50,624 bases of DNA. Source: an uncultured Lachnospiraceae bacterium. GTDB lineage: Bacteria > Bacillota > Clostridia > Lachnospirales > Lachnospiraceae. Shown piece by piece: positions 3,254-43,297 of this stretch (its first letter is position 1; every line of letters begins with the position of its first letter). The stretch lies in NCBI GenBank assembly GCA_948470755.1, contig CAOKPU010000015.1:1-50624 (forward strand), written 5' to 3'. Position numbers and translations under genes: made by a program. The notes under the pieces are model-generated. The model ran no database searches, was not told the DNA's origin, and saw nothing but the letters and a program-made list of their open reading frames with translations.

Positions 3254-4597
3254 TTCCTTCCTTTCCCATCACTGCTTTTACATGATATACCGTTCCTTTT
3301 TCCGCCACAGGAATGCATTCTACTTTCTCCCCGTCCAGATACAGCTCTTTTATGCCTTTCATCACCCCATCCAGATTAGTCACTTCGATCTCATAGACAG
3401 CTCCCCGCCGCTGCCGGTCATAAAAGGATGCCTTGCCCTGCCGTGGGCCGAATGATCTTTTCCCATTATAAACTGGCAATAAGAATAAGGTTCCGCCTCC
3501 CTTATTTCTATTTTATCATTCTGCCAGTAAGGACACAAGGCATTATAATATTTCATTGCCTTATCCCCCCTTCCCAGCCTGCATTCCGCCGCCCATGCCC
3601 ATGGGTCAGGCTCAAACCATTCCGGCTGAAATAGGTGAAGCCCGTACCCATCGGAAACAAGTCCCCGCAGTAGTCCTATGATCCGCTGCCTGCATTTGCC
3701 CGGGTTGGAATGAGGAACCGTCATCGCATCCTGCACCGTATCCCGGTATCCTAACCCGACCCGTCCGCCCAGCTCTATAAACGATGCAAACCGGGAAAAC
3801 ATTACATTGATCTCGGACTGGTAAAGCGTCCAAATATTAATCAGGGTACTCATGCCTTCATTGGGCGTCCGGATCTGCAGTTTCCCCAGCTTCGCATCCC
3901 AAAACCTTCTCAAATCCTCGTATACCTTATCCACCTTATCCCAATCACCATATTTTTCCCTCGCCTTCCTGCCTGCTTCCCCGTCCCCTTCTCCCAATAG
4001 AAAAAGGATCCTTGCTTCCTCGCCGGGCATCAGCCGGATATTTCTCTGCAGGGAACCGCAACGGTTATTCCCCAGTTCATGGGAGGCGCTGCACCGCCCC
4101 AGTTCCACCGCCTCCGGCTTATCTTCCGTCCGATAACTGCCGATAAATCTATCCCTTAAACAGTCGAACCCGTCCGGCATCACATTCGATGTAAAATATT
4201 GATACCCGCATTCCTCATAAAACAAATCATATGCAATGATTTCGTCTTCATAAGACGAACCGGAGCAATACAAGCTCATCTGAAAATTCTGGTTGTCAAT
4301 ATTAATATGATGGAAAGAAAACTCACAATAAGAAAATAAACTCAAGTCCCTTGGTTTCGTATCCTCGTTATCCCTTATATACACGTAATGGCCCGGCCGG
4401 TCCATCGGCACGCTGTTTCCCCTAAAACGGGTAATCCTGTGATATTCCGGCGTTTTATAAAACAGATAACCCCCTGCCGTATGATTTACTACCGCGCACA
4501 GATCCTCCACCCCCAGATAATTCGTCCACGATACGGGAACATCCACCCTGTCTATCACATATTCACGTTTCCCATTGTCAAAATAACCATATTTCAT
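3240..4597 (-). pseudogene. Decayed GH94 disaccharide phosphorylase (cellobiose/chitobiose phosphorylase type)
   Basis: GH94 enzymes split a disaccharide with phosphate into a sugar-1-phosphate and a free sugar. The N terminus (MKYGYFDNGKREYVIDRVDV, with a GGAGG site) is typical, but the reading frame is about 405 residues against roughly 800 for the family. Two internal segments are missing without loss of frame: one after YVYIRDNED (near 4335) and a much larger one after LFQPEWFEPD (near 3605), which jumps to PWAWAAECRLGRGDKAMKYY and removes most of the catalytic (alpha/alpha)6 barrel. A third break near 3400 shifts the frame: GSGGELSMRSK ends at a stop while the true C terminus (RRGAVYEIEVTNLDGVMKG...) continues in another frame to 3240. 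It cannot make an active enzyme. Substrate is undetermined. Confidence 0.85.
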
Positions 4598-40865: not shown

Positions 40866-41111
40866 ATGAGCAACAAACATAAAAATCCAACCATCAGCTT
40901 CAGAATTACTGACGCTGAGCGCAAACAAATTGAGGCACGCATTCTTGCCAGCGGAATGATGAAGAAAGATTACTTCGTGCGTTCCTGCATCTATAATCAT
41001 ATCTGCGTTGTCGGCAAAAAGGAAACTATATACCCTTTGGCACAAACCGTAAACGCATTGCAGGCAAACGGCTTGCAGGATTACGTGAATGCTATGAACA
41101 GATTTAACTAA
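40866..41111 (+). CDS. MobC-like relaxosome accessory protein
   Basis: An 81-residue protein: NPTISFRITDAERKQIEARI followed by LASGMMKKDYFVRSCIYNHICVVGKKETIYPL. This is the ribbon-helix-helix DNA-binding start of MobC/relaxosome proteins, which help the relaxase at the transfer origin. The ATG at 40866 has GGAAGGAG upstream; in-frame codons before it are not used. The usual C-terminal helical half is short (about 30 residues), so it could be truncated. No relaxase gene is next to it, which suggests a rearranged element. Confidence 0.7.
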   Translation: MSNKHKNPTISFRITDAERKQIEARILASGMMKKDYFVRSCIYNHICVVGKKETIYPLAQTVNALQANGLQDYVNAMNRFN

Positions 41112-41192
41112 CATATTACTTCCTATTTCCATCATTTGACTGCCATATCTACATGATGCTAGCATCATGTAATATTGCATTAACAAGAAAAA

Positions 41193-41563
41193 TTATTTTC
41201 TCTGTTGCAATTTTTCCAGTATAGCCATAACATCCGGCTGTGTTGGTGTAAACTTCACGCCACGTTTCAGCATACCTATAACTTTCTTTGCCTTCTGCTC
41301 AATCTCCTTAGCCGTATGCTCACTTGTCAGTATCAGATGATTTCCGGCTATGGTATACTCTCGTTCTATATATTCCTCGGTTATTGGAAACATATCCTGT
41401 ATCAAAAATGCGCTTTTCCGGTCATCATCCAGTATATGCCTATGCTTGTATCTTCAACGCAATAATAATGCGGTCTATTCCCTGCCTTATTTCCTTTGAG
41501 GTACGGATCAGACATATCCTCAAAAAATTTGTCCTTGATAATATAAAATCCTGTTTTCTTCAT
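41193..41563 (-). pseudogene. cptN: Type III toxin CptN/ToxN-like gene broken by an internal deletion
   Basis: The minus-strand ATG at 41563 (GGAG upstream) opens MKKTGFYIIKDKFFEDMSDP followed by YLKGNKAGNRPHYYCVEDTSIGIYWM, the N-terminal part of CptN-type endoRNase toxins. After YWM the frame leads to a stop at 41402. In the next frame, DDDRKSAFLIQDMFPITEEY continues through YIEREYTIAGNHLILTSEHTAKEI to a stop at 41193 and matches the C-terminal part of the same family. The ~40 residues that should join the two are missing. The deletion is out of frame, so no full toxin can be made. The terminator and the 45-nt repeat array directly upstream are the expected antitoxin half. Confidence 0.8.
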
Positions 41564-41583
41564 TCGCTCCGCCCTCACTATGT

Positions 41584-41613
41584 AAAAAGTCCCCCACCTT
41601 ACGGCGAAGGACT
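41584..41613 (-). terminator. Terminator between antitoxin RNA repeats and toxin gene
   Basis: Minus strand: AGTCCTTCGCC, loop GTAA, GGTGGGGGACT (11 pairs including three G-T), then TTTTT. It lies between the RNA repeats and the toxin ATG. This is the standard type III toxin-antitoxin layout, in which partial read-through sets the ratio of RNA antitoxin to toxin. Confidence 0.85.
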
Positions 41614-41711
41614 ATACTTTCGACCCAACCACTTATATACCGCATATTGGTCAGCGGTAAACTTTCAACCCGACCATTTATATACCACATATCGGTCAGT
41701 GGTAAACTTTC
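41609..41711 (-). ncRNA. cptI: CptI-like RNA antitoxin: 2.3 tandem 45-nt repeats
   Basis: On the minus strand two units of exactly 45 nt (41711-41667 and 41666-41622) start GAAAGTTTACC and differ at only a few places, several of them paired changes (CCACTGACCGATATGTGG versus CCGCTGACCAATATGCGG) that keep the inner stem. A third partial unit (GAAAGTATAGTCC) runs into the terminator. Unit length, number and position before a CptN-like gene match the CptIN class of type III systems, in which each unit is cut out and folds as a pseudoknot that binds the toxin. The IS element starts about 30 bases upstream, so its promoter may have been changed. Confidence 0.8.
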
Positions 41712-41851
41712 TTTGCACCTACATTTTAGTAAGCACAAAAAGGGGCTGTTGCAAAAGTAGATAAATAATCTACTGGAGCAGCAGCTCCACTTTTATGCTT
41801 AAAAATAGAAAACGGACTCCGAAGAGTCCGCCATCCATGGTATAATTAGAT

Positions 41852-43297
41852 ATGCCTAATAACCAAAAATACCATAAAAATTATACCGAATTCGGCGAGC
41901 CTTATCAACTGGTTTTGCCATTAAATTTAGAAGGTTTGGTTCCTGATGATGACTCTGTCCGACTGCTGAGCCATGAATTGGAGGAATTAGATTACAGCTT
42001 GCTGTATCAGGCTTACTCTGCCAAAGGCAGAAATCCGGCAGTGGACCCAAAGACCATGTTCAAGCTCCTGACCTATGCGTATTCCCAGAACATTTATTCA
42101 TCCAGAAAGATTGAAACGGCATGCAGACGAGATATCAACTTTATGTGGCTGCTTGCCGGTCAAAAAGCACCAGACCACAGCACCATTGCCCGTTTCCGTA
42201 CCGGATTTCTAGCAGATGCCTGTGAAAATCTGTTTTATCAGATGGTAAAACGGCTGGCAGAAGCCGGCGGATTGTCAAAAGAGACTGTTTTTATCGATGG
42301 AACAAAACTGGAAGCATGCGCCAACAAATATACGTTTGTCTGGAAAAAATCCGTAGGGAAATGGGAGGCAAAAATGTTTCTGGAAATCCAGAAAGCAGTG
42401 GCTTTGTTAAATCAGGAATACCTGGAGCTATTCCGGCGCTTTTTGGAACGGCAGGCAGTCTATGACTGGCATACAGCCAGCTTTCAGGGCAGGAATAATT
42501 ATTGCAAGACAGATCCGGATGCCACTTTTATGCACATGAAGGATGACCATATGCGCAATGCCCGGCTCAAACCGGGATATAATGTCCAGACTGCAGTAGA
42601 CAGCGAATATATCGTGGCGGCTGATGTTTTCCAGGACCGGAATGATGTGTGGACACTGGTCCCGTTTCTGAAGCGGATGGAGGAAAAGCTGGGATTCCGC
42701 TATCCGAGCGTGACTGCGGATTCCGGATATGAAAGCGAGGAAGCGTATACTTATCTGAGAGAGCAGAAACAAACGCCTTATATCAAGCCCCAGAGTTATG
42801 AAAAATGGAAAAAGCGGAGTTTCAAAAAGGATATCAGCAAACGGGAGAACATGGGATATGATGCAGCGGCAGATATCTACACCTGTCATGCAGGGAAAGA
42901 ACTGAAACCTCTTTTCATAAAGAAACAGAAAAGCAAAAGCGGCTATGAATGCGAAGACTGCACCGGCTGTCCTTATAAAGAAAAATGTACGAAAGCAAGG
43001 GGAAATAAACGACTGTATATTTCCAAAAGTTTTTTAGAAAAACGTCAGGAATCCTATGAAAACATCTTAAGCGAAAAAGGGATTTTATACCGGATGAACC
43101 GTTCCATCCAGGCGGAAGGGGCATTTGGAGTTCTGAAAAATGATTATGAATTCCAGCGTTTTCTGCTCCGCGGGAAAACCAAAGTGAAACTGGAGCTTCT
43201 TCTGCTGTGCATGGGCTATAATCTCAATAAACTTCACTCAAAAATACAGAAAGAACGGATAGGAGCTCATCTGTTCCAGATAAAAGAAACCGCATAA
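41852..43297 (+). CDS. IS1182-family DDE transposase
   Basis: A 481-residue transposase. N-terminal DUF772-type region (PYQLVLPLNLEGLVPDDDSV...RNPAVDPKTMFKLLTYAYSQ), then the DDE core: D in ETVFIDGTKLEA, D in VTADSGYESEEA and E in RSIQAEGAFGVLKNDYEF, in order and spacing expected for the family. A four-cysteine stretch (YECEDCTGCPYKEKCTKA) lies before the last catalytic residue. The frame is intact, so it may be active. The ATG is preceded by TATAAT at about 12 bases and no good ribosome site, as is common for IS elements. Confidence 0.93.
   Translation: MPNNQKYHKNYTEFGEPYQLVLPLNLEGLVPDDDSVRLLSHELEELDYSLLYQAYSAKGRNPAVDPKTMFKLLTYAYSQNIYSSRKIETACRRDINFMWLLAGQKAPDHSTIARFRTGFLADACENLFYQMVKRLAEAGGLSKETVFIDGTKLEACANKYTFVWKKSVGKWEAKMFLEIQKAVALLNQEYLELFRRFLERQAVYDWHTASFQGRNNYCKTDPDATFMHMKDDHMRNARLKPGYNVQTAVDSEYIVAADVFQDRNDVWTLVPFLKRMEEKLGFRYPSVTADSGYESEEAYTYLREQKQTPYIKPQSYEKWKKRSFKKDISKRENMGYDAAADIYTCHAGKELKPLFIKKQKSKSGYECEDCTGCPYKEKCTKARGNKRLYISKSFLEKRQESYENILSEKGILYRMNRSIQAEGAFGVLKNDYEFQRFLLRGKTKVKLELLLLCMGYNLNKLHSKIQKERIGAHLFQIKETA

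What the first reader, a model, noticed from the sequence alone, without database searches (positions are those of the whole stretch)
41193..41740. Decayed CptIN-type (type III) toxin-antitoxin locus hidden next to an IS element
Seen: two exact-length 45-nt repeats plus a partial one with paired base changes, then an 11-bp terminator stem with T-run, then an ATG frame whose two halves match a CptN-like toxin but are joined by an out-of-frame ~40-residue deletion. Known: type III systems have exactly this order, and CptIN loci have ~45-nt units in low copy. Inference: the RNA antitoxin outlived its toxin, or the toxin was silenced by deletion. The leftover RNA might act as an anti-toxin decoy against related systems on incoming elements.
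Basis: partly seen in the sequence, partly recalled or inferred. Interest (0 to 1): 0.85.

Follow-up and report, generated by a model that had tools for sequence, protein, structure and literature searches.

The report
Dead type III toxin-antitoxin relic
This is the wreck of a known kind of bacterial toxin-antitoxin pair: the toxin gene lost 100 bases at a spot where other species have lost the same piece independently, and its RNA antidote is still perfect but cut off from its own promoter by a jumping gene.

Summary
On the minus strand (41740 to 41193) lie two 45-nt CptI antitoxin units, a terminator and a CptN toxin gene broken by an out-of-frame deletion. Both toxin halves hit the CptIN profile and the solved CptN chain. 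The units show pseudoknot covariation and equal those of the nearest intact locus. The deletion is 100 nt, not ~40 residues, at a short word that 33 of 60 intact genes carry twice, 100 nt apart. Two other species have the same deletion and a tree rejects a single origin; a fourth copy was seen. Codon usage explains the repeats, so no selected switch is needed. The decoy idea is not supported: the promoter is cut, the host's intact CptIN is distant, and in toxin-less loci 7 of 15 units keep all pairs against 105 of 106 beside intact toxins. Some intact relatives lie beside genes of integrative mobilizable elements. Verdict: a decayed member of a known family.

The parts
41723..41728 (-). -10 box (TAAAAT) left over from the cptIN promoter; the -35 that relatives have is replaced by the IS end (about 41740)
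   Evidence: alignment to relatives; 51 of 52 intact loci away from contig edges match the full promoter pattern
41665..41709 (-). CptI antitoxin unit 1 (45 nt)
   Evidence: identical to unit 1 of L021
41620..41664 (-). CptI antitoxin unit 2 (45 nt)
   Evidence: identical to unit 2 of L021
41588..41613 (-). Terminator between antitoxin and toxin, 11-pair stem
41402..41563 (-). cptN N-terminal fragment (53 codons and stop, the last few out of the toxin's frame)
   Evidence: NF047359 profile 2-47; 4rmo residues 3-48
41424..41432 (-). Deletion junction: the single remaining copy of the direct-repeat word
41193..41432 (-). cptN C-terminal fragment, other frame
   Evidence: NF047359 profile 86-150; 4rmo residues 78-155
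41147..41170 (-). Palindrome kept downstream of many cptN genes; recombination-site-like (inferred)
40866..41111 (+). NikA-like mobilization gene, possible remnant of a mobile element
   Evidence: PF21983 E=1.4e-8
41852..43297 (+). IS1182-family transposase; the element's left end, at about 41740, lies in the cptIN promoter
   Evidence: NF033551 371 bits against a cut-off of 270; end compared with another copy
41811..41832 (-). Terminator-like hairpin in the IS that reads toward cptI
41880..41908 (-). Outward promoter-like site in the IS (11 of 12 matches), upstream of that hairpin; 1 site found where shuffles give 2.8

Best explanation
A CptIN (type III) toxin-antitoxin module, probably once the stabilising cargo of an integrative mobilizable element, has died here. 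A 100-nt deletion between two short direct repeats in cptN shifts the frame and removes residues of about 49-79, among them three residues (Ile60, Ile73, Ile74) that the structure paper places in pockets for antitoxin bases. An IS1182-family element has parted the shared promoter's -10 from its -35. The two antitoxin units are unchanged, which fits a recent death, but are probably little transcribed. Shown from sequence: the family, the deletion, its recurrence, the promoter cut. Inferred: slippage as the mechanism, that the toxin died before the antitoxin was disconnected, lack of transcription, arrival on a mobile element.
For: Family. Pseudoknot: 96.6% of cells paired, 20 cells changed on both sides against 4.9 in shuffles. 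Deletion: the relatives align in two pieces around the same 100 nt; a repeat of 7-11 nt at spacing 100 in 33 of 60 distinct intact genes. Recurrence: gapless alignment through the junction in L027 and L066, one clade rejected, p-AU 0.0007. Promoter: with 51 of 52. No unit-less locus among 52 intact ones away from contig edges, and unit-less ones among the broken (L027, L042), fit toxin death first. Mobile element.
Against: 27 of 60 intact genes lack a repeat of 7 nt or more at this spacing, and the nearest intact locus, L021, has one of only 8 nt, with a longer repeat elsewhere. An outward promoter-like site in the IS could give weak read-through. The flank beyond the IS does not show the missing promoter half, so a simple insertion is not shown. 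The window lacks an integrase or relaxase of the kind tested. Assembly error at the junction was not tested with reads.
Confidence: 0.9

Rival explanations
1. The leftover antitoxin is a kept, working solitary RNA that neutralises CptN toxins of incoming elements (anti-addiction, the first reader's decoy).
For: Both units are perfect. Relatives of the same clade with nearly the same units and intact toxins are common. 13 of 19 named loci with a broken toxin keep promoter and at least one unit. Weak IS read-through is possible.
Against: The promoter is cut. In toxin-less loci 7 of 15 units keep all ten pairs against 105 of 106 beside intact toxins. Identity to L021's units is also expected if the deletion is young.
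Confidence: 0.06
2. The deletion arose once and spread by transfer, so the window, L027 and L066 hold copies of one dead allele.
For: The deletion has the same length and place in all four copies seen.
Against: Each of the three is closer to intact loci than to the other two; one clade is rejected; the junctions lie in different sequence backgrounds. For the fourth copy, L185, ancestry is unresolved.
Confidence: 0.04
3. The short repeats are kept by selection as a fuse that lets cells disarm the toxin.
For: The same frame-breaking deletion recurs, and the word pair is the longest or a tied longest exact repeat in 17 of 60 intact genes.
Against: 29 of 57 scorable genes have TGGATGA at both places and 26.5 are expected from codon usage (not corrected for relatedness).
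Confidence: 0.03

Closest known systems
CptIN of Eubacterium rectale (PDB 4RMO, PMC4627078), type III toxin-antitoxin
   Same: Order of antitoxin repeats, terminator and toxin; two 45-nt units; pseudoknot nucleotides G13, A29, U30, G44 and A45; toxin halves matched at residues 3-48 and 78-155
   Different: Toxin broken by a 100-nt deletion; promoter cut by an IS; C6 of the published RNA is U here
Pseudo-ToxI of phage PhiTE (PMC3475682, passages seen)
   Same: Type III antitoxin-like repeats without a toxin of their own, as in the solitary CptI loci L124, L136 and L138
   Different: PhiTE expresses it during infection and it was shown to suppress ToxN; here there is no evidence of expression, and the family is CptIN
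Chromosomal anti-addiction modules (as named in PMC12548467, passages seen)
   Same: A chromosomal antitoxin that might neutralise a toxin of a mobile element
   Different: No evidence of expression or of upkeep in this window

Membership tests
CptIN type III toxin-antitoxin | Toxin sequence of the CptN family | tested here: met
   both fragments match NF047359 and 4rmo, each below the whole-protein cut-off because it is a fragment
CptIN type III toxin-antitoxin | Tandem 45-nt antitoxin repeats upstream of the toxin | tested here: met
   85 of 99 loci (some seen twice) have two units 45 nt apart
CptIN type III toxin-antitoxin | Antitoxin folds as an H-type pseudoknot with a one-base L1 and a long L2 | tested here: met
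   pairs 7-11/22-26 and 15-19/36-40 with covariation; by sequence only, no structure solved
CptIN type III toxin-antitoxin | Terminator between antitoxin and toxin | tested here: met
   41613-41588
CptIN type III toxin-antitoxin | One promoter for both parts | tested here: not met
   the -35 has been replaced by the IS end
CptIN type III toxin-antitoxin | Complete toxin gene | tested here: not met
   100-nt out-of-frame deletion; so it is filed as a decayed remnant, not as a working member
CptIN type III toxin-antitoxin | RNA processing by the toxin and neutralisation by direct binding | not testable with these tools
   needs RNA and growth assays

The most novel reading that the evidence does not exclude
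CptN genes of this clade carry a built-in weak spot: two conserved protein motifs (W-M-I and L-D-D) happen to be encoded by near-identical words 100 nt apart, so a single slippage always disarms the toxin and leaves a perfect antitoxin. Lineages that pass through that state (such as L066, with promoter and both units intact and the toxin dead) would for a while be immune to addiction by CptIN-bearing mobile elements of the same clade.
Probability: 0.15. Interest if true: 0.6.

Novelty: new member of a known kind. Interest (0 to 1): 0.38.

Why it matters
The window itself is an ordinary wreck. The comparison is more useful: it gives a decay series for a type III system (L021 intact; L066 with a dead toxin but promoter and antitoxin kept; the window with the antitoxin disconnected; L027 with the antitoxin lost), the same deletion arisen at least three times, and natural solitary CptI loci with a promoter in which anti-addiction by an RNA antitoxin can be tested directly.

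Tried and rejected
Rfam: two matches below gathering in the window; in L021 and L003 none fits CptI, one being a yjdF-type riboswitch above gathering in L021 and one below it in L003. Pfam and PADLOC gave nothing for the toxin halves. With the C half as query, the plasmid and phage collections gave no match and the viral contigs one, at 59%.

A selected fuse was considered and dropped (3 of 60 genes could not be scored). Relaxed constraint after the deletion could not be shown: few substitutions on the branches (synonymous to other: window 3 and 3, L066 5 and 4, L027 9 and 0).

Weak points of the counts. under-counted units in broken loci; one search recounts all 19: 15 keep a unit, 13 of them with a promoter; of the 4 without units two (L029, L085) are near contig edges. 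The toxin-less class (12 loci, 15 units) holds two contig-edge loci (L139, L188) and one weak match (L189). Absence of a toxin was tested by tblastn for 8 of the 12 and for the other 4 by the family search (for L194). Units were found by similarity, so decayed ones are under-counted. In the intact class 96 of 106 units keep all five key nucleotides, in the broken 24 of 24, in the toxin-less 7 of 15. Many loci are metagenome assemblies, so some 'broken' genes may be sequencing errors. The tree left out three rows under 74% identity (L119, L122, L130), short rows and duplicates; 87 of 107 remained. The alignment holds 25 of the 44 distinct units and 7 units.

Literature: searches were seen as listings with the starts of abstracts; one search was too wide to use ('toxIN' matches 'toxin'). 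No listed title or abstract start named solitary chromosomal type III antitoxins or this deletion; full texts were not read for that, and the founding classification paper is not held, so absence from print is not claimed. One paper reports the reverse, orphan type III toxin homologues in P. aeruginosa (PMC9424990, passage). Structure prediction was not run.

Full report
Observation. On the minus strand of 41193-41740 lie two 45-nt repeats, a terminator and a broken toxin gene. In the register of the solved CptI RNA the units are 41709-41665 and 41664-41620. They differ at six positions, four of which form two compensatory pairs. The N fragment (41563-41402) hits NCBIfam NF047359 (CptIN toxin) over profile 2-47, E=5.3e-15, and the C fragment over 86-150, E=4.1e-16. 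The solved E. rectale CptN (4rmo) is matched at residues 3-48 and 78-155. Pfam and PADLOC have nothing for either half.

The deletion. Most of those examined align to the window in two pieces with 100 extra nt between them. The short word at the window junction stands twice in many intact genes: an exact repeat of 7-11 nt at spacing 100 in 33 of 60 distinct genes, the longest or tied longest repeat of the gene in 17 of 60. The nearest intact locus, L021, has one of 8 nt. Loss of one copy with the stretch between removes 33 codons and one base and so breaks the frame. By 4rmo numbering residues of about 49-79 are lost. The structure paper (PMC4627078; abstract and RESULTS read) places Ile60, Ile73 and Ile74 in pockets for bases U4 and C6 and names a Ser-Ser/Thr-Arg triad; the lost piece holds those isoleucines and a Pro-Leu-Ser-Ser-Arg stretch. 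That this stretch is the triad is my inference.

Recurrence. L027 (uncultured Eubacterium sp.) and L066 (a Lachnospiraceae assembly) align through the junction without a gap, 82.6% over 386 nt and 87.1% over 536 nt. Each of the three is closer to intact loci than to the other two. In a tree of 87 C-half sequences the window pairs with intact L021 (99/85), and a clade of the three is rejected (p-AU 0.0007). A fourth copy, L185 (G203:C23), has the same junction in a small fragment (85.8% over 190 nt); its ancestry is unresolved. Slippage between the repeats is the likely mechanism (inference). Codon usage predicts 26.5 of 57 genes with TGGATGA at both places and 29 have it, so the weak spot looks like a by-product of the conserved motifs W-M-I and L-D-D.

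The antitoxin. Thirty-two distinct units support the CptI pseudoknot: 96.6% of cells paired, 20 cells changed on both sides against 4.9 in shuffles and 0-3 with slid partners; the measure 'further pair types' does not exceed shuffles, 10 against 10.2. The window units equal those of L021 and keep G13, A29, U30, G44 and A45.

The promoter. Relatives share TTGACT, a spacer of about 17 nt and a TAGAAT-like -10, mostly with TG before it; 51 of 52 intact loci away from contig edges fit the pattern. In the window homology stops short of the -35, where the end of an IS1182-family element begins (about 41740). The -10 remains at 41728-41723; the -35 and the TG are gone. The IS has one outward promoter-like site followed by a terminator-like hairpin before cptI, so weak read-through cannot be excluded. 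The flank beyond the IS does not show the missing promoter half, so a simple insertion is not shown.

Is the orphan antitoxin kept for a purpose? Of the 80 named loci 61 have an intact toxin frame and 19 a broken one. All 52 intact loci away from contig edges have two units. Of the 19 broken ones 15 keep a unit and 13 of these a promoter. That order needs no selection if losing the antitoxin first is lethal. What happens later is the better test: units with all ten pairs are 105 of 106 beside intact toxins (53 loci), 23 of 24 beside broken ones (13 loci) and 7 of 15 in 12 loci without a recognisable toxin (caveats in Tried and rejected). This speaks against general upkeep of solitary CptI. The window's genome also has an intact CptIN on contig C37 (189.8 bits), but its toxin is 33-35% identical to this clade and its repeat has a 48-nt period; published CptI RNAs did not cross-neutralise at 35-44% toxin identity (PMC4627078). 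So the decoy idea is not supported for the window. L066, L124 and L136, with promoter and units but no working toxin, are better places to test it.

Context. 18 of 80 named flanks hold kin (tblastn E<=1e-10) of the relaxase, integrase, NikA-like protein or repressor of a mobilizable element in L216. A palindrome follows many cptN genes (81 downstream stretches printed), stands at both sides of the L216 element and at two or more places in 10 of 80 named loci. The window keeps one at 41147-41170 and a NikA-like gene beside it, weakly like that of L216 (26%) and 98% and 95% identical over 65 residues to genes in L086 and L073. I infer the relic of such an element's cargo; no integrase or relaxase of this kind was found in the window.

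Survey. A covariance model of the unit matched 34 of 397 genomes of the family at E<=1e-4; 66 of the same 397 had a CptIN toxin match, 56 over the cut-off. In the genus it was 9 of 16, 6 over the cut-off.

Verdict. A real, correctly recognised but decayed CptIN locus. The deletion is one of at least three independent losses at the same place. The decoy function is unlikely here. CptIN is known; the decay series and the recurrent deletion are modest additions.

Noticed in passing
window 41147-41170; L021 2503 and 4265; L216 8091 and 14187: A palindrome (ATGGTGCTAGCACCAT core, with compensatory changes among loci) follows many cptN genes and stands at both sides of a relaxase-integrase element in L216: a likely attachment site or element end.
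   Followed up: partly
L124, L136, L138, L140 (units at 1533, 1505, 1505, 1057): Solitary CptI loci: promoter-like sequence, one or two units and a terminator, but no recognisable cptN.
   Followed up: partly
L027 about 3840-3900: Promoter -35 kept, both antitoxin units gone, toxin with the same 100-nt deletion: the late stage of decay.
   Followed up: partly
L021 2622-3439: A yjdF-type (azaaromatic) riboswitch, a DUF2992 gene and a DmpI-like tautomerase lie between the palindrome and CptIN; the DUF2992 protein also stands beside other CptIN loci such as L048, L061 and L088.
   Followed up: no
L133 2469-2912: A CptIN locus (toxin about 59% identical) with two units on a 4.7-kb contig of the viral collection.
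   Followed up: no
G000 contig C37 29189-29629 (L003): A second, intact CptIN of another subclade in the same genome, with 48-nt-period repeats; 86% identical to one in genus mate G005.
   Followed up: partly
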